From contig LT827126.1 in assembly GCA_900169975.1 (NCBI GenBank), forward strand, positions 868,001 through 932,000: a DNA stretch of 64,000 nucleotides, written 5' to 3'. The notes beneath the pieces were generated by a model. That model saw only the letters and a list, made by a program, of their open reading frames with translations, ran no database searches and was not told the origin of the DNA. The number at the start of each line of letters is the position of its first letter. Position 1 is the stretch's first letter. Below are positions 4,538 to 47,580 of this stretch, piece by piece. This DNA comes from Pseudoflavonifractor sp. Marseille-P3106. Its GTDB lineage: Bacteria > Bacillota > Clostridia > Oscillospirales > Oscillospiraceae. The translations under genes and the position numbers were made by a program.

Positions 4538-4759
4538 TTAAATCGAGTATTGCCTTTCGATAAACTCGTCAAAGACTTTCCTTTTAATCATTCTTCTGCT
4601 ACCAATCCAAAGAACAAAAGGACAATCCTGACTTTCCGTCATTTCATAAAGCTTTCCCATTCCAATACCGGAATAAGCTGCCGCCTCCTCAATAGACAGG
4701 TTTGGTTTACACCAAAGAGGAATGTTGTAACGCTTCTTTTTTTCACTGCTATTTGACAT
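4538..4759 (-). CDS. Excisionase-like protein, fourth copy
   Basis: 73 residues from the ATG at 4759 (preceded by gaaagggg). The core LSIEEAAAYSGIGMGKLYEMTESQDCPFVLWIGSRRMIKRKVF is nearly the consensus of the set. Its first codons overlap the end of the MazF-like gene by 11 bp, so it is likely translated together with the toxin and could tie toxin level to a DNA-binding regulator. A reading from 4882 would only add residues from inside the toxin gene. No dedicated antitoxin is visible, so this gene is a possible partner, but that is speculation from position only. Confidence 0.75.
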   Translation of the reverse strand: MSNSSEKKKRYNIPLWCKPNLSIEEAAAYSGIGMGKLYEMTESQDCPFVLWIGSRRMIKRKVFDEFIERQYSI

Positions 4760-5312
4760 TCCTGCACCCCTTTCCTTTGACCGAGGTGCGTTTGTCATAA
4801 ACGATGTAATCCCAACCGCTGTTATTGCACTTATCGCAGTGGTCTTTGCTTTTCGCAAACGGGTCAAGACGCCTGACAACATAGTTTGGGTCGTGGATAT
4901 AGTCGCTCAGACACTTGGGGCATAAGCAACGAACATCTCCGTTTCTGTCTGTGTTGTAAATCCATAAACCGAAAGTCTTTTTAAGAGCTGCGTTAATTTG
5001 CTTCCAAAGCCTTTCATCGTTTACCGAACCAATGTAGTCTGTCAGTTCATCCTTATTGACGGTCTGTATCTGTTCAAGAAGAACCATTGACGGCTTCTTC
5101 AGACCGAAGTCCTCACCCAAAATGATGTGTGAAGGAAGATACTTCTTTTTCATCACAGCTGTAACAGCCGCAACAATAATTGTCGGAGCGTTTGCATTAA
5201 AGTTGTCCGCCTGAATTACCATTACAGGTCTCTCTCCCGACTGGACAGACCCCTCCCTTTTTCCAAAATCGTAGTAGAATAAATCTCCACGCTGAATTTC
5301 TTTTCTCTGCAT
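4749..5312 (-). CDS. MazF/PemK-family toxin-like protein with C-terminal zinc-ribbon extension
   Basis: 187 residues from the ATG at 5312 (gagagg upstream). Residues 1-115 form a MazF/PemK fold: QRGDLFYYDFG, SGERPVMVIQADNFN, VAAVTAVMKKKYLPSHI, SMVLLEQIQTVNK. Members are sequence-specific mRNA endonucleases that slow growth. The remaining 70 residues are unusual: CLCPKCLSDY and CDKCNNSGW form two Cys pairs that look like a zinc ribbon. No antitoxin-like gene with an obvious toxin-binding tail is adjacent. It could stabilise the ICE or act on host mRNA during transfer. Toxin activity has not been shown from sequence alone. Confidence 0.75.
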   Translation of the reverse strand: MQRKEIQRGDLFYYDFGKREGSVQSGERPVMVIQADNFNANAPTIIVAAVTAVMKKKYLPSHIILGEDFGLKKPSMVLLEQIQTVNKDELTDYIGSVNDERLWKQINAALKKTFGLWIYNTDRNGDVRCLCPKCLSDYIHDPNYVVRRLDPFAKSKDHCDKCNNSGWDYIVYDKRTSVKGKGCRNVK

Positions 5313-5372
5313 ATATGTATAACCTCTCTGTTCATTTAGTCTTGAAAGTGCATTTCGTATCCGGAATTGAAA

Positions 5373-5424
5373 TAACCCCTTCACTCATTTGGACAAAGGG
5401 GGTCAAAATGCACACCCAAAATCA
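5373..5424. repeat. 52-bp direct repeat, left copy
   Basis: Identical over 52 bp to 45672-45723 and in the same orientation. It contains a short hairpin (accccttt-type stem, cccc with gggg). It lies in the gap after the sigma-like gene, overlapping its stop codon. Together the two copies bracket 40 kb of ICE. Confidence 0.85.
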
Positions 5425-11128: not shown

Positions 11129-13048
11129 ATGAAAATAATCAATATTGGAATTCTTGCCCATGTAGACGCTGGAAAGACGACCTTGACGGAGAGCCTGCTA
11201 TATGCCAGCGGAGCCATTTCAGAACCGGGGAGCGTCGAAAAAGGGACAACGAGGACGGACACCATGCTTTTGGAGCGGCAGCGTGGGATTACCATTCAAG
11301 CGGCAGTCACTTCCTTCCAGTGGCACAGATGTAAAGTCAACATTGTGGATACGCCCGGCCACATGGATTTTTTGGCGGAGGTGTACCGCTCTTTGGCTGT
11401 TTTAGATGGGGCCATCTTGGTGATCTCCGCTAAAGATGGCGTGCAGGCCCAGACCCGTATTCTGTTCCATGCCCTGCGGAAAATGGACATTCCCACCGTT
11501 ATCTTTATCAATAAGATTGACCAAACTGGCGTTGATTTGCAAGGCGTGTATCAGTCTGTTCGGGATAAGCTCTCCGCCGATATTATCATCAAGCAGACGG
11601 TGTCGCTGTCCCCGGAAATAGTCCTGGAGGAAAATACCGACATAGAAGCATGGGATGCGGTCATTGAAAATAACGATGAATTATTGGAAAAGTATATCGC
11701 AGGAGAACCAATCAGCCGGGAAGAACTTGCGCGGGAGGAACAGCGGCGGGTTCAAGACGCCTCCCTGTTCCCGGTCTATCATGGCAGCGCCAAAAAGGGC
11801 CTTGGCATTCAACCGTTGATGGATGCGGTGACAGGGCTGTTCCAACCGATTGGGGAACAGGGGAGCGCCGCCCTATGCGGCAGCGTTTTCAAGGTGGAGT
11901 ATACAGATTGTGACCAGCGGCTCATCTATCTGCGGCTATACAGCGGAACGCTGCGCCTGCGGGATACGGTGGCCCTGGCCGGGAGAGAAAAGCTGAAAAT
12001 CACAGAGATGCGTATTCCATCCAAAGGGGAGATTGTTCGGACAGACACCGCCCATAAGGGCGAAATTGTCATCCTTCCCAGCGACAGCGTGGGATTAAAC
12101 GACGTATTGGGGGACGACACCCGGCTTCCTCGTGAAAGGTGGCGTGATGCCCCCCTCCCCATGCTGCGGACGACGATTGCGCCGAAAACGGCAGCGCAAA
12201 GAGAACGGCTGCTGGACGCTCTTACTCAAATTGCGGATACTGACCCGCTTTTGCGCTACGAGGTGGATTCCATCACCCACGAGATCATTCTTTCTTTTTT
12301 AGGCCGGGTGCAGTTGGAGGTTGTTTCCGCTTTGCTGGCGGAAAAGTACAAGATTGAAACAGCGGTGAAGGAACCTACCGTCATTTATTTAGAGCGGCCG
12401 CTCAAAGTGGCCAGCCACACCATCCATATCGAGGTGCCGCCCAACCCGTTTTGGGCATCCATCGGGCTGTCTGTTACGCCGCTCCCGCTTGGCTCCGGTG
12501 TACAATACGAGAGCCGGGTTTCCCTGGGATACTTGAACCAGAGTTTTCAAAACGCTGTCATGGATGGTATCCGTTACGGCCTGGAGCAAGGCTTGTGTGG
12601 CTGGAACGTAACGGACTGTAAGATTTGCTTTGAATACGGGCTTTATTATAGCCCGGTCAGCACGCCGGCGGACTTTCGCTCATTGGCCCCGATTGTATTG
12701 GAACAGGCATTGAAGGAATCAGGGACGCAGTTGCTGGAACCTTATCTCTCCTTCACCCTCTATGCGCCCCAGGAATACCTTTCCAGGGCTTATCACGATG
12801 CGCCGAAATACTGTGCCACCATCGAAACGGCCCAGGTAAAAAAGGATGAAGTTGTCTTTACGGGCGAGATTCCCGTCCGCTGCATACAGGCATACCGTAC
12901 TGATCTGGCCTTTTACACCAACGGGCGGAGCGTATGCTTGACGGAACTGAAAGGGTATCAGGCCGCTGTCGGCGAGCCGGTCATCCAGCCCCGCCGTCCA
13001 AACAGCCGCCTGGATAAGGTGCGCCATATGTTCAGTAAGATCACTTGA
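11129..13048 (+). CDS. tet(W): Tetracycline resistance ribosomal protection protein Tet(W)
   Basis: A 639-residue EF-G-like GTPase that releases tetracycline from the ribosome. G motifs are [20 protein letters not shown] and INKID. The translation-factor domains II-V follow in normal order and the C-terminus is [15 protein letters not shown]. From memory of the family, long stretches match Tet(W) from end to end, rather than the Tet(O) or Tet(32) blocks of known mosaics, although scattered changes exist (for example [21 protein letters not shown]). gggagg precedes the ATG. With its leader and promoter it forms an inserted segment that breaks an HxlR gene on its left and ends at a terminator before the transfer block. 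Confidence 0.95.
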
Positions 13049-25426: not shown

Positions 25427-25550
25427 TTTTATCGCTGTCCTTTCTGTTAATATAGTGCCTGTCCCGGTTTATCTGAAACAGGCACATTGTTGTTACTCCG
25501 AAAAAGCCGCCGATGATTAACCCGGCGGCAACCAATACTATCTCCCGCAT
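25407..25550 (-). CDS. 47-residue membrane protein (DUF3789-like)
   Basis: Starts at an ATG at 25550 behind aaaggag. An N-terminal hydrophobic span (IVLVAAGLIIGGFFGVTTMCLF) is followed by a charged tail (NRDRHYINRKDSDKNEQEKH). The end overlaps mobC by 20 bp, so it is coupled to it. Its role is unknown, but its placement before mobC recurs in related elements as I recall them. Confidence 0.7.
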   Translation of the reverse strand: MREIVLVAAGLIIGGFFGVTTMCLFQINRDRHYINRKDSDKNEQEKH

Positions 25551-38156: not shown

Positions 38157-38182
38157 GTGGGCGAAGTTTTCACTCCGCCCAC
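38157..38182 (-). promoter_or_regulatory. Hairpin after the adhesin transcript
   Basis: gtgggcg pairs with cgcccac around a 12-base loop, without a clear U-run. It may stabilise or weakly terminate the adhesin message. Confidence 0.45.
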
Positions 38183-38193
38183 ACAAGCGTTCC

Positions 38194-38283
38194 TTATTTC
38201 TTTCTGTTCTTAATTTGCAAGAAGATAAAGCCGCCGATAATAAAGGCGACTAATACAACTGCTACGATTGTTTTAGCGTCCAT
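38194..38283 (-). CDS. 29-residue single-span membrane peptide
   Basis: The ATG overlaps the adhesin stop codon (TAATG). Sequence: MDAKT, one hydrophobic span (IVAVVLVAFIIGGFIFL) and a basic end (QIKNRKK). The tight stop-start overlap implies it is made with the adhesin. It could help secretion or sorting of it, but that is inference from position only. Confidence 0.6.
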   Translation of the reverse strand: MDAKTIVAVVLVAFIIGGFIFLQIKNRKK

Positions 38284-41200
38284 TACTCATTGTCCTCCTT
38301 CTTCTTTTTTCTGTACGCAACAACGGCTGTGCCGACAATACCGAGGGCAGAAAGTCCCGCAAGTGCCGTCCACAAGCCCACATTGCTGTTATCTCCGGTC
38401 TTTGGTGTGTCTCTCAGCTCATTGTGCATTTCCACAACGGTAGTAGAGCCGACCTTTACTGTTGCAATCTTATCCGCAGGAAGCACATAGGAAGCAGAAA
38501 CACTATCCTGAACCTCGGAAACGGTGTAATCGCCGATACGAAGTCCCTCAATAACGATTTCGCCGTTCTTATCGGTCGTGAAGCTTCGGTCGTATCCGTT
38601 TACTCCCGTAACTCTGAAAGTGAAGCCTTCAACCTTACCGTCTGAGGAAGTCTTAACGATTTTCAGGTTTCCTTTCATAGCCGTGTTAATAAAGCCGACG
38701 CCGGCTTTGTTTTCTACCTCATAGGTCATTTCATCTTTTTCAATGAAAACAGAGTACACACCCTTATCAAGTTCAAAGCCTTCCGGTGCTTTGGTTTCTC
38801 TTACAAGGTATTTTCCGTAAAGAAACTCCTTCATCTCGTAAATACCCGTAGAAGTTTCGTTGAGTGTACCGATAAGCTCGTCGCCGTCGTCCAGTTTGCC
38901 ATCGCCGTTTACATCTTTGTAAACCTCAAAGGTCGCTCCTGTCAGCTTGTTGTCCGGGTAATCTTCATCGACCTTAGTCAACTTGATATTGCCGTGAACA
39001 TACTCATTGACGATTTCGACCTCAATGACCTGAGCGACCTCGGAGATTTTAACTTCATAAGAAGTTTCATCAAGCACGAAGCCCTCCGGCTGCTCGATTT
39101 CTCTTACAAGCCAGTTGCCATACGGTACTTTCTCAAAAGAAAAGCTACCGTCTTTTTGGGAGGTAGCAGTCATCAAAGCATTTTCTTTTGTAAATTCGGT
39201 TTCATCAGCCTTAAACAGACCGATTACAGCACCTCCCAGTGCTTCGCCGTTTTCGGTAATCTTCTTACCGGAAACAGAACCGTAAATGAGCTTGTTTTCA
39301 ATCGGCTTGCCGTCATTGACTGCAATCTCAACAGTTTCGGTATCCTGTCCCGCATAGCTGAAAGTAAACGGATACTTGCTGTCGGAAAGGATATAATGCT
39401 CATCAGTTGCAAGTTCCTTTACATAGTAGCTTCCAAAAGGAAGGTCGGTTTTGATAACAGCCTTACCATTTTCGGAAAGTGAGATAATCTCAATCAGACC
39501 GTCTGCCGGGATAGAAGTACCGCTTGTTGAAACAAGTTCCTCAGCAGCGAAAAGTCCGAAGCTGATGTTCTTCACTTCATCGCCGTTGCCGATATTGAAG
39601 ATGTCGTTCTTCTCGATAGCTTTTTCAAGACTTACCGTAACCTTTTGTCTCTCGTTTACGAAGCTGGTTGCGGTTTCAGTTACGGCAACTTCCTGACCTG
39701 CGTAGGTAAGCTCGACCTCGTGTGCTTCCTTGTTGATAACCATACCCTCCGGTGCGGTAATTTCAACTACCGTATATCTGCCGAGGTAAAGCTCCTTACT
39801 CTTTGCAAGTCCGTTTTCATCTGTGGTAACAGTATCTACGACCTCGCCCTTTGCATAACGGAGTGTTCCGTCAGGAGTGATAATATCTTCTGCTGCGGTA
39901 ATCTCATAAACCGCACCTGCAAGACCTTTCACTTCATAGACAGGCTGATAAATCACATCGGCATTTTCCTCTCCGGAGATATTTACCCCTGAGAATACCT
40001 CGCCGGTCTTTTCAATGCTGACAGTACCTTTCTGTGCCATATTAGGCTTATCGACCTTAATCACGGTAATACCACCCTCATCGGAAGAATGTTCCTCTGC
40101 CACATCAAAGTACACCGGTGTGCTGTCAAGCACATATCCGTAAGGAGCCTGAACCTCAACAAGAGAATATCCCTTGCCGTATTCCAGTTTCTCCGGTGTA
40201 ACAAGCTGTCCGTTTGCATCAGTGTAGAAAATATCTATCGTTGTCGGAGTAGGATAAGTGAAGGTCATTGTTACCTGATTGCCGTCCGGGTCAAAGATTT
40301 TGAACCCAGCACCGGCATAAGGAATGTTTTTACCACTTTCTGCGTCCACCTTAACCACCTTGATATAGCTTTCAAAGTTTGCGTTGTTGATGAGATAGCG
40401 GTAGGTCTGTCCGTTCTGAGCAATGAACACATCGAAGTCGTCCATTAACTCACGCCCCTCCCAACCGGAGGTCTGATGAACGGTATATACGCCGTAAGGC
40501 ATATCCTTTGTCTGACCGAAGCCGTTTTCATCACAAACAATTACATCTCTTTCATCTTCCTCTGCTGAATCAAAGCTGCCGGAAGATTTCAGATAGATTT
40601 CAAAAGTTGCACCGTTTTCCGGTGTTTCAATCTTTGTTTCGCCGTCATCGGTATGCTTGATGATAGCGATATTGCCTTTCATAACCTGTTCGGTAACATC
40701 ATTTGCGGTCTGATTGTGTTCCACCGTATAAAGCTGCGGTTCAGCACCGACCTTATGGATTGTACCGTCGAGCAGATAACCCTCGGACGGCGTGATTTCA
40801 CGGATTGTCCAGTCATCATCACAGATATATTCCTTTGTGGTAAACTGCCCGTTCTTATCCGTAACATATTTGTCCACAAGGGTTTCGCCCTTATAAATGC
40901 CGTAAACTGCTCCGGCAAGGGTAGCGTCGCCCTGCGGTGTGCCTTCCTCTCGGTCGCTCTTTGTTACGGTTACGCTGAACTTTTTGAGAATGTTCGTGAA
41001 GTTTCTTGTGGTTACTTCTTTCCAGTTAATCGGTGCGGTCTGATTTGCAGGCACAACATAACGGATTGCGGTATCCACTTCCTCAATGGTGTATGGGGTA
41101 GTGCCGCTTATAAGCACATCATCGAAAGAAGCAACACCGTTCTTATCTGTCACTGCATATTCATCTACGGTAATACCCGCAAGCGAAGTTCCGTAAAGGT

Positions 41201-42533
41201 GGAAAGTTACACCCTCGACCAGATTATCCTCCGAAGATTTGATAACCTGAAGATTACCTCTCTTGAGAACATTATTGAAGTTGACCTTTGCCACCTGACC
41301 GGCAACAACAGTAACTCTGTGAACCTCCTGCGGTACATATTTGTCGATAGACTGTTCTGTTACCGTGTAAACACCGGGCATAAGGTTATCCAGTTGGAAT
41401 TTGCCGCCGTTTGCGGTTGTTACAGTCTGATTGACACCGTTACCGCTGATGGTAAACTGAATACCGTCAACCTTTCCGTCCTCACTTGTCTTTACAATCT
41501 GACAAGAGCCGTAGCTTACCTTCATTTTGACAAAGCCGCTGACAGGGTCGCTGACCTCCTGAGCATAAGTGACCACATCCTGAATGCCGTTGCCATTCTG
41601 ATGGATACCGTCAGACCATACGACAACACCTCTGCGGACACCGTTCTTTTTTGCGGCTGTGATGGTAAATTCCTTGCTCGGAGCTTTCTCCATCGAAACA
41701 GTCAATTTGTTTCCGCTGACAGAGAACGAAACGCCGTCAATATTTGCCGAGAAATTGTAATTGCCAAGCACACCGTTTGTATCGGTGAGAGTTGCAACAT
41801 ACTTGCTTCCGTTCCATTCAAGCTCGTTCACCTTGGCAGAACCGCTTGACCTTGTGCAGAAGCTCGGAACTTTCGTATGGTTCTGAACGCTTGTTACCAT
41901 ACTGTTGTAGTACGACAAGATTTTGCTGCGGAGAGGGTGTGCTGAGCTTACACATTCAAGCACGGCATTGTACCCTCCGGTAGAAACGTGATTGAAGCTT
42001 GCGTCTCTTTCTCCGACAATCGTTTCCCAAATCAAAATCTGAGTGGCATAAGCGTGTGCGATACAGTTTGCGTCGCTTTCATTCTGCGACTTCCAGCTTG
42101 TCGAAATACCTCCACGGTAGCCGTACTGCAAGATACGACCGATAAGCAGGCGAATATCATCGCCGGAAATCGTACCGTTCGGACTGATGTTGTTGAAGAA
42201 GTTCTCGTCCTTTTCGGTGAGAGTATCTCCTGTCCGCTGACCTGTACCCGGCTCGATACAGTAGGCGATATTGCCCGAATACGAACCCATTGCACGAAGT
42301 CCCGTATATTTCGTGGACAAGCCTTTCCAACCGTTCATATAGTTGAGATTGCCGTGTCCCCATTCGCCGTTGTTATTGGTATCTCCGCTTCGGGGATAAT
42401 CGACGAGGTACACATCGGCTTTTTCGCCTACGGCTGCAAAGGCTGTCGTTGCCCCAATGCCCATAAAAGCAGTAAGGCTCATAACCGCCGCCAACATAAG
42501 CGAGACGGCTTTCTTGAATTTTGTTTTAACCAT
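38283..42533 (-). CDS. Large sortase-anchored adhesin with thioester and Cna_B domains
   Basis: 1416 residues from the ATG at 42533 (ggagg upstream). A signal peptide (SLMLAAVMSLTAFMGIGATTAFA) leads into a thioester-type domain: the Cys of AYCIEPGTG and the Gln of ATQILIWET are the expected cross-link pair. Then about ten SpaA/Cna_B repeats follow, recognised by recurring GNLKIVK, FTTDKNGE, G-x-YTV-x-E-x and EVQAP-GY pieces. The end has TPKTGD, a membrane span (VGLWTALAGLSALGIVGTAVVAY) and KKKKED. It probably binds recipient or host surfaces covalently; the sortase at 15 kb is the likely enzyme for anchoring it. Confidence 0.92.
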   Translation of the reverse strand: MVKTKFKKAVSLMLAAVMSLTAFMGIGATTAFAAVGEKADVYLVDYPRSGDTNNNGEWGHGNLNYMNGWKGLSTKYTGLRAMGSYSGNIAYCIEPGTGQRTGDTLTEKDENFFNNISPNGTISGDDIRLLIGRILQYGYRGGISTSWKSQNESDANCIAHAYATQILIWETIVGERDASFNHVSTGGYNAVLECVSSAHPLRSKILSYYNSMVTSVQNHTKVPSFCTRSSGSAKVNELEWNGSKYVATLTDTNGVLGNYNFSANIDGVSFSVSGNKLTVSMEKAPSKEFTITAAKKNGVRRGVVVWSDGIHQNGNGIQDVVTYAQEVSDPVSGFVKMKVSYGSCQIVKTSEDGKVDGIQFTISGNGVNQTVTTANGGKFQLDNLMPGVYTVTEQSIDKYVPQEVHRVTVVAGQVAKVNFNNVLKRGNLQVIKSSEDNLVEGVTFHLYGTSLAGITVDEYAVTDKNGVASFDDVLISGTTPYTIEEVDTAIRYVVPANQTAPINWKEVTTRNFTNILKKFSVTVTKSDREEGTPQGDATLAGAVYGIYKGETLVDKYVTDKNGQFTTKEYICDDDWTIREITPSEGYLLDGTIHKVGAEPQLYTVEHNQTANDVTEQVMKGNIAIIKHTDDGETKIETPENGATFEIYLKSSGSFDSAEEDERDVIVCDENGFGQTKDMPYGVYTVHQTSGWEGRELMDDFDVFIAQNGQTYRYLINNANFESYIKVVKVDAESGKNIPYAGAGFKIFDPDGNQVTMTFTYPTPTTIDIFYTDANGQLVTPEKLEYGKGYSLVEVQAPYGYVLDSTPVYFDVAEEHSSDEGGITVIKVDKPNMAQKGTVSIEKTGEVFSGVNISGEENADVIYQPVYEVKGLAGAVYEITAAEDIITPDGTLRYAKGEVVDTVTTDENGLAKSKELYLGRYTVVEITAPEGMVINKEAHEVELTYAGQEVAVTETATSFVNERQKVTVSLEKAIEKNDIFNIGNGDEVKNISFGLFAAEELVSTSGTSIPADGLIEIISLSENGKAVIKTDLPFGSYYVKELATDEHYILSDSKYPFTFSYAGQDTETVEIAVNDGKPIENKLIYGSVSGKKITENGEALGGAVIGLFKADETEFTKENALMTATSQKDGSFSFEKVPYGNWLVREIEQPEGFVLDETSYEVKISEVAQVIEVEIVNEYVHGNIKLTKVDEDYPDNKLTGATFEVYKDVNGDGKLDDGDELIGTLNETSTGIYEMKEFLYGKYLVRETKAPEGFELDKGVYSVFIEKDEMTYEVENKAGVGFINTAMKGNLKIVKTSSDGKVEGFTFRVTGVNGYDRSFTTDKNGEIVIEGLRIGDYTVSEVQDSVSASYVLPADKIATVKVGSTTVVEMHNELRDTPKTGDNSNVGLWTALAGLSALGIVGTAVVAYRKKKKEDNE

Positions 42534-42554
42534 TGCGTTTTCCTCCTTGAAATG

Positions 42555-42583
42555 CAAAAACGCACCGATTTTACTCAGTGCGT
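42555..42583 (-). terminator. Terminator just before the adhesin gene
   Basis: acgcac pairs with gtgcgt and is followed by TTTTTG, 20 bases before the adhesin ribosome-binding site. It would stop most transcripts from the lipoprotein gene, so the adhesin may depend on regulated readthrough. Confidence 0.7.
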
Positions 42584-42603
42584 CCGCTTAAAATTATTTT
42601 GTT

Positions 42604-43540: not shown

Positions 43541-44485
43541 CTATCGGCTGTCACGGTCGGCTCTGCTTCGCAGAAACTTGTTGTAATGCTCCAATGCCTT
43601 GCACACAAAATCCTCCGTTTGGCTTATGGGAATATTCTTCGGGATAAGCTGTCGAACCCTGTCGCCCCTTAAAACAATTTTCTCCCTTTGGTTTGGTTTT
43701 TCCTCCGACATAATCGCTTGGATTGCTTCGGTTGTGAGCTTGCCCTCCTCAAAGAACTTTCGCATACGGATTGTTTGGTCGTGGGACGGAGTTGCGTCGT
43801 TCAGGTCGATTTCATCAACCACATCACGCTGACTGTCCTCATCGAGAAAAGACAATTCAACCGCCGGTCGCATTTTAATTCGCCCCTCATCAACATATTC
43901 CAAAAGTTCGGGAACAAGGTTTGTAAGGCGAATATATCTGCGAACTTGGGTTTGACTGTCACCCGACTGCTCTCCAATTAGTTGTGCTGTTTCTTTTCCG
44001 CTTGACTTCCAACCCACTGGGTCGGAAGTTAGGTCTGTTCTTTTGCCTTGTCTGCTCAATGCTTCCAAACGCATTTTGTAGGCATAGGCTTTTTCCGAGG
44101 GAAGTATCTGCGACCTTTGGTAGTTGCTCTCAACCATTAAAATCGTGGCTTCGTCTCGGTTCAGTTCAACGACCTCACAACGGAGAGTATCAAACCCGGC
44201 AAGCTCACAGGCTCGCTTTCGTCTGTGTCCCGATATGAGTTCGTATCTGCCGTCCTCTTTCTGCCTTACCGTCGCCGGAGTGATTACCCCTCGTTCCTTA
44301 ATACTCTCAATGAGCTGTGCCATATCCTCGTCATCACGCACCTTAAAAGGGTGGTCGGGGAAATCGTCAATCTCAGTCAAGGGAATATCTCGGATTTTTG
44401 AAAGTTTTTCTTCATCTCTCTGTTCCTGCGTCGAGAATAAGTCATCGAGCTTCGTGAGAGTGAAGTCGCTCTTTCTTCCTGCCAT
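43541..44485 (-). CDS. parB: ParB/Spo0J-family partition protein
   Basis: 314 residues. The ParB N-terminal nuclease-like domain has VRDDEDMAQLIESIKERGVI and ELISGHRRKRACELAG. The helix-turn-helix KASG-type segment follows, read here as GEQSGDSQTQVRRYIRLTNLV. It overlaps parA by 44 bp. With ParA it would keep the excised circle in dividing cells or assist transfer. The 230 bp after the lipoprotein gene up to this gene carry no evident gene. Confidence 0.9.
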   Translation of the reverse strand: MAGRKSDFTLTKLDDLFSTQEQRDEEKLSKIRDIPLTEIDDFPDHPFKVRDDEDMAQLIESIKERGVITPATVRQKEDGRYELISGHRRKRACELAGFDTLRCEVVELNRDEATILMVESNYQRSQILPSEKAYAYKMRLEALSRQGKRTDLTSDPVGWKSSGKETAQLIGEQSGDSQTQVRRYIRLTNLVPELLEYVDEGRIKMRPAVELSFLDEDSQRDVVDEIDLNDATPSHDQTIRMRKFFEEGKLTTEAIQAIMSEEKPNQREKIVLRGDRVRQLIPKNIPISQTEDFVCKALEHYNKFLRSRADRDSR

Positions 44486-45266
44486 CGGCTAACACCTCCT
44501 TTGTAAATTCGGTGTACGCTTTTGACACCGTGCTGCCCGGTTCGTAGGCAAAAATGCTCTTGCCTTTGGAAGAAGTCTCTGCGGCTTTTACGGCAATCGG
44601 GATATATGTTCGATACATCTTGATTTGACTACCGAAGTTCTCTCTCAGAGCTTCTACCGTGCTTTTGGCGAGGTTGGTACGGCTATCCACCAAAGTGAGA
44701 AGCATACCGTCAATCTTTAAGCCCGGATTGATACGCTTCTTAACTCGTGAAATGGTCTGAACAAGCTGCGTCATACCTTTTGCCGGTAAATACTGAGCCT
44801 GAACAGGAATTATTACGCTGTCTGCCGCAGATAGAGCATTGATTGTTACCATTCCGAGGGAAGGCATACAATCTATTAAGATATAGTCGTATTTGTCCTT
44901 CACTTCGCTTAGATAATTTCTCAATGCCGTCTCTCTGCTCATTGCGTTGACAAGGTTAAATTCCATTGCTGAAAGCTCAAGGTTTGCCGGAACAAGGTCA
45001 ACACCTTCGTCGTGGTGCAGAATACCGACCGTAGGGTCATTCATCGTTTCGTTTATGACATCTGTGAGTTTCGTTGCAAGCGTGATACCCAAGTTATCCG
45101 TATCCTTCCAACCGAGACAGGTGGTTAAGTCGCCCTGTGGGTCTGCGTCTATGAGCAACACTTTCTTTCCCTGCATTGCAAGACCGACGCCGAGGTTTAC
45201 CGTGGTGGTCGTCTTTCCAACTCCGCCTTTTTGATTGCATATAGCAATCGTTTTGCAGTTCGACAC
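44442..45266 (-). CDS. parA: ParA-family ATPase
   Basis: 274 residues, GTG start behind ggagg. Deviant Walker A motif KGGVGKTTTTVNLG, Walker B-like ILIDCMPSLGM and DADPQGDLTTCLG are classic ParA/Soj. It is preceded by a long structured leader of about 350 nt with no gene. It drives ICE partition or positions the transfer apparatus. The unusual leader suggests its level is controlled at RNA level. Confidence 0.93.
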   Translation of the reverse strand: MSNCKTIAICNQKGGVGKTTTTVNLGVGLAMQGKKVLLIDADPQGDLTTCLGWKDTDNLGITLATKLTDVINETMNDPTVGILHHDEGVDLVPANLELSAMEFNLVNAMSRETALRNYLSEVKDKYDYILIDCMPSLGMVTINALSAADSVIIPVQAQYLPAKGMTQLVQTISRVKKRINPGLKIDGMLLTLVDSRTNLAKSTVEALRENFGSQIKMYRTYIPIAVKAAETSSKGKSIFAYEPGSTVSKAYTEFTKEVLADGRKKERLHSHEAR

Positions 45267-45632
45267 TTTGTGCGTCCTCCTTTCGTAAAATTCATAGCCA
45301 TCGCAGTATGGCTATGTACTTGACCGGCTCATTTCCTAACCGGTCGGGCAATATTTGTTCTCAACACCCCTTGCCGAGCAAAAAGCTCACGGGAAGTCAC
45401 TAAGGAACAGACTGCTAATCTGTATCATAGGAATTTCACCTCTGCCGGGTACTCCGCCAGCTCCGTAGAGAAGTATCATTATCCTTCTGACTGTCATCGC
45501 CGTAACAGGGGCAACCTATTACTTATACCGGGAGTTCTCGCTGTTCTGCAATGCAGAAGTCACGGCGTACCCGATAAGGTGGCTAAAATCATCAGAATTA
45601 AAGTCTTAGTGAATGATTTATTCAGTTGTCAA
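45267..45632 (-). ncRNA. Highly structured RNA-like leader upstream of parA, family unknown
   Basis: About 350 nt without any gene, rich in perfect helices on the minus strand. A closing helix 45568-45573/45446-45451 stacks directly on a 9-bp helix 45559-45567/45498-45506. Hairpins are at 45544-45558, 45469-45488, 45407-45423 (5-bp stem with loop ctgctaa), 45376-45388, 45322-45345 and 45294-45315 (8-bp stem). A TTGACA box at 45627-45632 could start it, although the -10 is weak. It may be a regulatory leader of parA or a separate RNA. No known riboswitch core is evident to me. Confidence 0.6.
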
Positions 45633-45671
45633 AATACAAGTGAATGGGCTGACCTTTTCGTGGTTCGGAAT

Positions 45672-45723
45672 TAACCCCTTCACTCATTTGGACAAAGGGG
45701 GTCAAAATGCACACCCAAAATCA
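45672..45723. repeat. 52-bp direct repeat, right copy
   Basis: Identical to 5373-5424. It lies between the parA leader and the cargo genes. What follows resembles the 3' end of the sigma-like gene, so this is a remnant of a similar gene end rather than a free-standing site. Confidence 0.85.
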
Positions 45724-45765
45724 CCCCTTTTTCAAAAAATTCTTGAAAATATTTTTTTAGAAACA
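45724..45765 (-). pseudogene. Decayed 3' end of a sigma-like gene
   Basis: Reads as about 12 codons similar to the sigma-like C-terminus (K-N-x-FKNFLKKG and stop versus KNFKKFYENL and stop). Together with the 52-bp repeat it shows a second copy of the region that follows the sigma-like gene. It marks the seam where the cargo segment (45.8-49.4 kb) was joined. Confidence 0.55.
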
Positions 45766-45885
45766 AAAAAGCCGCCTATTTCCCTCGTAATTGAGGTCAA
45801 TAGACGGCGGGTAGAAATATTCATAATTTTGGTGTATAATAGGAAATTAAGAGAAAGACAAATTTGAATTTGACGGAGAGATAGT

Positions 45886-46653: not shown

Positions 46654-46707
46654 GAACAGTTAGAATCAATCTTTTTTTTGTGATATAATTTTATTGAGGT
46701 GAATGAA

Positions 46708-47580
46708 ATGAGGACTGAAAAAGAAATATACGATTTAGTTTTGAATTTTGCTTTTCAAGATGAGAGAATTAGAATTGTAACTCTTGAGGGGTCTCGCACT
46801 AATGTTAATATACCAAAAGACAATCTTCAAGATTATGATATTACTTTTTTTGTTATAGATATGGGAGAATTTTTGAAAAGCGATGACTGGCTTAGTGTTT
46901 TTGGTAACAGAATTATGATGCAAAAACCTGAAGATATGGAATTATTTCCTCCAGAAGAAAAAGGATTTTCTTATATAATGCTTTTTGATGATGGTGTAAA
47001 GATTGATTTAACTTTGTTACCTGTTTCAATGCTTGAGGAGTATCTTACTCGCGATAAACTTGTAAAAATCATGTTAGATAAAGATAATATGATTAAAACA
47101 GAAATAGTTCCCACAGATGAAGATTATTACATTAAGTGTCCAACAGAAAGAAAGTTTGATGACTGTTGTAACGAATTTTGGAATGTTGCAACATATGTAT
47201 CCAAGGGCTTACTTCGTGGTGAAATACTATTTGCAATAGACCATATGAATGAAGTATTACGTCATGAGCTTCTTAGGATGATTAGTTGGTATGTCGGTAC
47301 TGAAAAAGGATTTAATTTCAGTTTGGGTAAAAACTATAAATTTTTAGATAAGCATATTTCAAAAGAATTGTGGGATAACTTACTAAATACATATTCAATG
47401 AGTTCGTATGAAGAAATGTGGAAATCGTTTGATTTGTGTCTATGTTTGTTCAAAAAAATATCTAAAAAAGTGGCAGATTCACTTGGTTATAATTATCCTG
47501 ATTATGATGAAAACGTTACAAAATATTTGGAAACACAAAAGAGAATTTCAAATAAATATCTTTATGGTAATAGGTATTGA
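46708..47580 (+). CDS. ant(6): Aminoglycoside 6-adenylyltransferase, ANT(6)-Ib-like
   Basis: 290 residues from the ATG at 46708 behind gaggtg. Key blocks of ANT(6) are clear: VTLEGSRTN, NLQDYDITFFV with the metal-binding Asp residues, RIMMQKPEDMELFPPEEKG, KIDLTLLP, KFDDCCNEFWNVATYVSKGL, ILFAIDHMNEVLRHELLRMI, GKNYKFLDKHIS, YPDYDENV. It modifies streptomycin at position 6. By memory it is nearer to ANT(6)-Ib than Ia but clearly different from both. The gene is very AT-rich compared with all neighbours, which shows separate origin. It ends before a good terminator. Confidence 0.9.
   Translation: MRTEKEIYDLVLNFAFQDERIRIVTLEGSRTNVNIPKDNLQDYDITFFVIDMGEFLKSDDWLSVFGNRIMMQKPEDMELFPPEEKGFSYIMLFDDGVKIDLTLLPVSMLEEYLTRDKLVKIMLDKDNMIKTEIVPTDEDYYIKCPTERKFDDCCNEFWNVATYVSKGLLRGEILFAIDHMNEVLRHELLRMISWYVGTEKGFNFSLGKNYKFLDKHISKELWDNLLNTYSMSSYEEMWKSFDLCLCLFKKISKKVADSLGYNYPDYDENVTKYLETQKRISNKYLYGNRY

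What the first reader, a model, noticed from the sequence alone, without database searches (positions are those of the whole stretch)
45267..45632. Unassigned, densely structured RNA-like region upstream of parA
About 350 nt without a gene folds on paper into a compact body. A closing helix (45568-45573 with 45446-45451) stacks on a 9-bp helix (45559-45567 with 45498-45506). At least six local hairpins are visible, including perfect 8-bp, 6-bp and 5-bp stems. Such density of exact helices, upstream of a GTG-started parA with a good ribosome-binding site, suggests a conserved RNA, either a cis-acting leader or a separate RNA that controls ICE copy, partition or transfer. I could not match it to a riboswitch or to a large RNA class I know.
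Basis: partly seen in the sequence, partly recalled or inferred. Interest (0 to 1): 0.78.

Follow-up and report, generated by a model that had tools for sequence, protein, structure and literature searches.

The report
canT-type antiterminator RNA of an ICE
The untranslated stretch before parA encodes a large, conserved, folded RNA related to one already shown to let RNA polymerase run through stop signals, and it probably switches on the long DNA-transfer operon of this mobile element in the same way.

Summary
Its centre, 45425-45482, is a full-length Rfam pemK RNA (RF02913, 70.2 bits), a 61-nt motif. That motif is the core of a ~250-nt RNA: boxA-like box, long-range closing helix P1 (45605-45612 with 45397-45404), P2-P4, core, P8. 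A model built without Tn916 finds the published Tn916 antiterminator canT over its whole length (117.5 bits, in pCF10). The published inactivating canT mutation maps onto the AUA that opens the pemK core. Best explanation: a cis-acting processive antiterminator heading a parA-to-conjugation operon of about 32 kb. Seven of seven syntenic operons carry an intrinsic terminator just before the pilin-like gene. rRNA operons of two same-family genomes carry nearly the same box. Homology and structure are shown here; antitermination by this copy is inferred. No link between pemK and canT turned up in the paper searches.

The parts
45397..45634 (-). canT-type RNA from the boxA-like box to the 3' strand of the closing helix (model R1 match 45382-45634)
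   Evidence: R1 201.9 bits (the window is one of the 27 sequences of the model); covariation
45619..45634 (-). boxA-like box TTTTGACAACTGAATA
   Evidence: Conserved columns 1-16 in A1 and A3; two genomes of the window's family hold CTTGAAAACTGAACA after the 16S gene
45605..45612 (-). P1 5' strand UCACUAAG (closing helix)
   Evidence: Pairs with 45397-45404; 64 of 70 cores score >=14 against 26% of mismatched-locus pairings; 8 of 8 pairs change on both sides
45397..45404 (-). P1 3' strand CUUAGUGA
   Evidence: As for the 5' strand
45592..45597 (-). P2 5' strand UUCUGA, pairs with 45485-45490
   Evidence: 7 of 7 P2 pairs have changes on both sides, 80.5% of cells paired in A3; aligned less well in A1, 55.2%
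45485..45490 (-). P2 3' strand UCAGAA
   Evidence: As above
45539..45567 (-). P3b hairpin (CGC/GCG outer pairs, internal loop, variable inner stem)
   Evidence: Helices 5-6, 4-5
45503..45521 (-). P4 hairpin UAAUAGG/CCUGUUA
   Evidence: 5 of 5 modelled pairs change on both sides
45425..45482 (-). pemK core, AUAAUGAUACUUC ... GGUGAAAUUCCUAUGA
   Evidence: Rfam RF02913, 70.2 bits, model 1-61 of 61
45407..45423 (-). P8 hairpin ACAGAU/GUCUGU
   Evidence: 6 of 6 pairs change on both sides
45346..45375 (-). 3' hairpin GGCAAGGGGUGUUGAGAACAAAUAUUGCC; present in part of the family
   Evidence: Pattern found in 39 of 79 loci tested (3 more too short to test); not found in the pCF10 copy
45293..45316 (-). 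hairpin CAUAGCC/GGCUAUG just before the parA ribosome-binding site; weak U tract
   Evidence: Seen directly and, by eye, in parA-type relatives
44442..45266 (-). parA, first gene after the RNA
   Evidence: Pfam AAA_31 1.6e-59
43541..44485 (-). parB-type gene
   Evidence: TIGR00180 and ParB_N
42558..42585 (-). terminator TA, directly before the ribosome-binding site of the pilin-like gene 38283-42557
   Evidence: Terminator-like site; position conserved in 7 of 7 syntenic operons with diverged sequence
38157..38182 (-). second terminator-like hairpin, TB, after the pilin-like gene
   Evidence: counterparts about +7.24 kb in L118 and L120
15885..18218 (-). VirB4-like conjugation ATPase, CD1110 family, far end of the operon
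   Evidence: NF045971, 1052 bits

Best explanation
The region encodes a cis-acting processive antiterminator RNA of the canT type, at the head of the conjugation operon of an ICE. As RNA polymerase leaves the promoter it transcribes the boxA-like box and then the folded RNA (closing helix P1, P2-P4, the pemK core, P8). The nascent RNA stays with the polymerase, the box perhaps recruiting NusB/S10 as in rRNA operons, and makes it resistant to terminators. It then reads through TA before the pilin-like gene and later ones, so parA, parB and about 30 kb of transfer genes are expressed, while stray transcripts without the RNA stop. Shown here: the structure, its conservation, its homology to canT and the conserved terminator TA. 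Shown in print for Tn916 (PMC11658703): antitermination in cis, processivity, loss of activity on altering the core. Inferred: activity of this copy, contact with polymerase, the role of boxA, the extent of the transcript.
For: Model R1, built from 27 loci without Tn916, matches the Tn916-type copy in pCF10 at L091:41784-42081 over positions 1-253, 117.5 bits, E 8e-33 (E-values are rough, calibration was short); the next best match in pCF10 1-50000 scores 12.3 bits. Rfam pemK matches the same canT at 55.0 bits. PMC11658703 reports canT as a cis-acting, orientation-dependent processive antiterminator needing no other Tn916 gene (passages; discussion). Its 3-base inactivating change, at +283 after orf8, maps to L091:41922-41920, which reads ATA there, the first bases of the pemK core; its 162-bp deletion removes the whole core. 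Covariation: 245 double-change cells, 93 shuffled; 1084, 325 shuffled, in A3. Of 118 stretches picked by the core pattern in named genomes, the 80 listed were searched: 80 of 80 match R1, 72 over positions 1-253; of 24 viral contigs 24 match, 23 over 1-253. First downstream genes are unrelated to each other: of 53 proteins 18 match PemK and 10 ParA. Terminator TA in 7 of 7 syntenic operons.
Against: No transcript or activity data for this copy. No sigma-70-like promoter passed the scan between 45640 and 45890 on the minus strand. A plain count of terminator-like sites in 14 element stretches shows no excess on the sense strand in gaps (50 sense, 46 antisense; within genes 63 and 99), so the argument rests on TA. 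The strong hit at 25506-25529 lies in a small reading frame and was dropped. The active 452-bp canT fragment begins inside the boxA-like box, so the full box may not be needed; the window's own 16S leader holds only a distant version of it (5 of 16 different). TA could be an mRNA-stability hairpin.
Confidence: 0.85

Rival explanations
1. A cis-acting leader that senses something (ligand, protein or ParA itself) and controls translation or attenuation of parA through the hairpin 45293-45316 next to its ribosome-binding site.
For: In the parA-type loci the gene starts 112-159 nt after the core (in L067 it starts 418 nt after), and in the window a hairpin abuts the ribosome-binding site.
Against: The same RNA precedes PemK toxins, DUF6870 proteins, recombinases and others; the Tn916 homologue lets transcription pass foreign terminators (PMC11658703).
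Confidence: 0.08
2. A separate trans-acting small RNA of the ICE whose 3' end lies before parA.
For: It is large and ornate, and a hairpin with a short U tract lies at 45293-45316.
Against: The U tract is weak and the terminator scan did not list it; a gene on the same strand follows within about 520 nt in 67 of 78 cores examined; canT supplied in trans did not complement (PMC11658703).
Confidence: 0.05
3. An RNA that regulates PemK-type toxins, as the Rfam name suggests, and is here only by recombination.
For: 18 of 53 downstream proteins match PemK; the window's own pemK gene shares a 41-bp upstream block with this RNA.
Against: 35 of 53 have no PemK match. The window's pemK gene follows the shared block with no pemK RNA there; the scan of the whole window found one copy only.
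Confidence: 0.02

Closest known systems
canT of Tn916 (PLoS Genet 2024, PMC11658703; copy read in pCF10)
   Same: Full-length match to the covariance model, with boxA-like box, P1, P2, P3b, P4, pemK core and P8 in the same order; lies in an ICE
   Different: Its core match is 43 nt longer (101 against 58 nt) and the 3' GGGG..CAAAUA hairpin was not found. canT lies between orf8 and xis and acts after circularisation; this one heads a parA-parB-conjugation operon inside the element
Rfam pemK RNA (RF02913)
   Same: Central 58 nt are a full-length member, 70.2 bits
   Different: Rfam models 61 nt; the conserved RNA here spans about 250 nt with a closing helix outside the Rfam model
Rfam dinG RNA (RF03082)
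   Same: 4 of 5 dinG hits in 398 genomes lie inside R1 matches of 62-72 bits that share P1-P4 of the 5' domain, boxA clearly in 3 of the 4 (two of the 4 are near-identical)
   Different: A different 3' part of the core; the fifth hit has no R1 match; the window scores only 20.5 bits, gathering 46.9
conAn2 of pLS20
   Same: RNA component of a processive antitermination system at the head of a conjugation operon (PMC8955417, passages)
   Different: No R1 match in the first 50,000 of 65,774 bases of pLS20; conAn has a protein component as well
rRNA boxA antitermination sites
   Same: TTGAAAACTGAACA in a 16S leader (G623) and after the 16S gene in G229 and G394, against TTGA(A/C)AACTGAATA here
   Different: Here the box is joined to a large covarying RNA; the window's own 16S leader differs more

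Membership tests
canT-type antiterminator RNA | Homology to the Tn916 canT RNA in sequence and structure | tested here: met
   117.5 bits, E 8e-33 (rough), positions 1-253, model built without Tn916
canT-type antiterminator RNA | Holds the bases whose change inactivates canT | tested here: met
   AUA at the start of the core, 45480-45482; two of its three columns invariant in 27 of 27; mapping
canT-type antiterminator RNA | Predicted terminators lie downstream in a co-directional operon | tested here: met
   Terminator TA before the pilin-like gene in 7 of 7 syntenic operons; general terminator counts show no sense-strand excess; the transcript itself was not seen
canT-type antiterminator RNA | Processive antitermination in cis | not testable with these tools
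   Needs a reporter assay
Rfam pemK RNA RF02913 | Score above the gathering threshold | tested here: met
   70.2 against 34.8 bits
Rfam dinG RNA RF03082 | Score above the gathering threshold | tested here: not met
   20.5 against 46.9 bits
conAn (pLS20) antitermination system | RNA homologous to conAn2 | tested here: inconclusive
   No R1 match in pLS20 1-50000; the conAn paper is not held and the conAn2 letters were not compared directly
EAR and other catalogued RNA families | Match to another Rfam family | tested here: not met
   In 45100-45800 at E up to 10: pemK, dinG (below cut-off) and two weak others, AniS and STnc410
rRNA-type boxA antitermination | boxA sequence | tested here: inconclusive
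   Near-identical motif in rRNA operons of 3 of the 7 genomes in which a 16S gene was found, of 14 searched; the window's own 16S leader differs at 5 of 16; that the motif is boxA is recalled
rRNA-type boxA antitermination | Binding of NusB and S10 | not testable with these tools
   Needs biochemistry

The most novel reading that the evidence does not exclude
Rfam's pemK and dinG motifs and Tn916 canT are pieces of one phylum-wide class of RNA-only processive antiterminators. Most copies join an rRNA-like boxA to a ~250-nt fold closed by a long-range helix, and mobile elements across Bacillota use it to free their operons from terminators. Minimal ~145-nt copies, even in tandem, keep boxA, P1-like strands, core and P8.
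Probability: 0.72. Interest if true: 0.8.

Novelty: new member of a known kind. Interest (0 to 1): 0.72.

Why it matters
It gives a testable function to a widespread Rfam motif for which I found no function in print (pemK, and possibly dinG). [quoted passage not shown] Antitermination then looks like a common control of mobile-element operons in Bacillota, not a Tn916 peculiarity, which bears on how transfer of elements carrying resistance genes is regulated.

Tried and rejected
pLS20 conAn2 as a homologue: no R1 match in 50 kb. A general excess of sense-strand terminators in gaps: not found, 50 sense against 46 antisense over 14 stretches; only TA, and more weakly TB, were kept. The hairpin at 25506-25529 was dropped because it lies in a small reading frame. 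A Rfam search at E up to 10 gave no other convincing family. Two papers looked up by DOI (10.1093/nar/gkx699, which I recall as the motif-discovery paper, and gkab360 on conAn) are not held. Paper searches that could have shown a pemK-canT link: RF02913, pemK RNA, canT RNA, pemK motif RNA (8 listed); pemK motif and related terms (20 of 71 listed); canT with Tn916 (3 listed); processive antitermination with ICEs (1 listed). No listing showed the link. I looked at passages on pemK in PMC11701678, PMC11507696 and PMC7657543: family lists, structure refinement and test sets, no function. Apart from those three and PMC11658703, the papers listed there were not opened. The main text of PMC11658703 has no occurrence of Rfam, pemK or boxA.

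Full report
Observation. Between parA (44442-45266, minus strand) and 45612 there is no reading frame of 50 aa or more, and the minus strand folds 3.3 standard deviations better than shuffles. Rfam places a full-length pemK RNA at 45425-45482 (70.2 bits). pemK RNAs occur in 139 of 394 sampled genomes of the order. In annotated plasmid records the region is 98% identical in one Monoglobus pectinilyticus record, at a ParA gene, and 84% in one phage-collection contig.

The RNA is larger than the Rfam motif. A first alignment of 37 loci showed conserved blocks far outside it. Of 82 cores in the loci then held (near-duplicates, the window and the pCF10 copy included), 70 had a boxA-like box, up to 5 of 16 substitutions allowed, within 330 nt upstream. 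In these the closing helix P1 scored 14 or more in 64 of 70, against 26% when the two strands were taken from different loci; for P2 the figures were 49 of 70 and 46%, a weak result. For alignment A1 I took cores with a box 105-205 nt upstream, left out pCF10, L041 and L063, and removed near-duplicates; of the 37 left, the 27 shortest were aligned and the ten longest left out. RNAalifold on A1 recovered P1, P4, the core stems and P8 unaided. With P2, P3 and P3b added by hand, 84.0% of cells pair (shuffled 67.5%), 245 cells have changes on both sides (shuffled 93, slid at most 102), in 39 of 48 pairs (shuffled 31). P2 is poorly aligned in A1 (55.2% of cells).

Further loci. I searched those 80. 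All 80 match model R1 at E 2.6e-8 or better, 72 over positions 1-253 and 8 in part; they include Streptococcus, Enterococcus, Listeria, Vagococcus, Erysipelothrix, Anaerococcus and many Clostridia. All 24 viral contigs found by the same pattern match, 23 over 1-253. On the 80 rows (76 distinct) 92.7% of cells pair (shuffled 62.9%), with 1084 double-change cells (shuffled 325). That alignment is fitted to the model and leans towards it, and the core letters are fixed by the search pattern. In an even sample of the phylum, own genome included, 33 of 398 genomes have an R1 match. E-values from R1 are rough because calibration was short.

Link to canT. PMC11658703 (passages, and sections 20 and 21 read) describes canT of Tn916, a cis-acting, processive antiterminator RNA between orf8 and xis, active without other Tn916 genes; its authors did not further pursue sequence or structural analyses. 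The Tn916-type element in plasmid pCF10 has an Rfam pemK hit of 55.0 bits there. R1, built without it, matches 41784-42081 over its full length at 117.5 bits. Taking HS345_RS00230 as orf8, the published positions give the inactivating 3-base change at 41922-41920, where the record indeed reads ATA; these are the first three bases of the pemK core. In A1 two of these three columns are invariant. The 162-bp deletion (41976-41815) removes the core.

Context. The window holds an ICE: after the RNA come parA, parB, a gene that looks like a lipoprotein (no family match), a pilin-like gene (just below the family cut-off), a methylase-helicase, a relaxase-like gene (below cut-off), VirD4 (CD1115) and VirB4 (CD1110), almost all on the minus strand down to 13327. 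Seven loci (the window and six of 17 relatives examined) share RNA-parA-parB-lipoprotein-pilin. In all seven an intrinsic terminator, 2743-2861 nt after the core, sits between the last two genes, directly before the pilin ribosome-binding site, with diverged stems. The window and L123 are nearly identical there, so six are independent. Expression of the pilin-like gene from upstream needs read-through. A second hairpin about 7.24 kb downstream is seen in the window, L118 and L120. A blind count of terminator-like sites gave no sense excess (50 sense and 46 antisense in gaps, 63 and 99 in genes).

The RNA is not tied to one gene. Of 78 cores examined (four tandem cores left out), 11 gave no qualifying reading frame and 67 did; 52 proteins remained after removing 14 near-duplicates and the pCF10 copy. 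With the window's ParA these made 53: 18 PemK, 10 ParA, 3 DUF6870, 3 HTH_17, 2 serine recombinases, the rest other or unassigned.

boxA. The box at the 5' end, TTGA(A/C)AACTGAATA, is strongly conserved. Of 14 genomes searched for 16S genes, 7 gave one. Among these I found TTGAAAACTGAACA in the 16S leader of G623 and CTTGAAAACTGAACA after the 16S gene (taken as the 16S-23S spacer) in G229 and G394, which belong to the window's family. G528 has versions with 3 changes. The 16S leaders of G229 and G394 hold a more distant TTGTAAATTAAACA, as does the window's own genome, and G469, G388 and G099 show no good match. That this motif is the NusB/S10 site is recalled knowledge. The active canT fragment starts inside the box, so its need is open.

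Related class. In 398 genomes 5 dinG RNA (RF03082) hits were found; 4 lie inside R1 matches of 62-72 bits that share P1, P2, P3b and P4, with a clear boxA in 3 of the 4 (two of these near-identical); one (L297) has no R1 match. Locus L041 holds four tandem short copies of about 145 nt that keep boxA and core.

Conclusion. The window RNA is by homology a canT-type processive antiterminator at the head of a conjugation operon. Structure, conservation, homology and the conserved terminator are shown; its own activity, contact with polymerase and the boxA step are inferred.

Noticed in passing
window 45672-45712 and 5373-5413 (both minus strand): A 41-bp block is repeated without mismatch (87% over about 90 bp) upstream of this RNA and at the start of the long frame of the window's PemK-type gene, 4749-5384; probably a shared promoter or operator.
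   Followed up: partly
L296, L298, L299, L300: Rfam dinG RNAs lie inside R1 matches and share much of the 5' domain of the canT-type RNA; L297 does not.
   Followed up: partly
L041:1751-3263 (minus strand): Four tandem, about 145-nt minimal copies (boxA, P1-like strands by eye, core, P8, 3' hairpin) without the P2-P4 domain, spaced 430-500 nt.
   Followed up: partly
G000:C20:967908-968176 and G000:C15:188836-189128: Two further full-length R1 copies in the window's own genome, 162 and 90 bits.
   Followed up: no
upstream of the RNA in several loci, e.g. L009, L014, L051: A partly conserved upstream stretch (such as TTTTGCCATTCTCG..GCCTAC) without sigma-70 look; pCF10 annotates a sigma-70-family gene just upstream of the gene taken as orf8. 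An element-encoded sigma factor may read this promoter.
   Followed up: no
window 45346-45375: 3' hairpin with loop GUU-GAG-AAC, GUC-GAG-GAC in relatives, found in 39 of 79 loci tested; its role is unknown.
   Followed up: partly
window 11129-13048 (+) and 46699-47580 (+): An EF-G-like gene that looks like a ribosomal-protection protein and a streptomycin adenylyltransferase-type gene lie in or beside the ICE.
   Followed up: no
window about 25550-25420 (minus strand): A small hydrophobic reading frame whose coding sequence contains a terminator-like hairpin, 25506-25529.
   Followed up: partly
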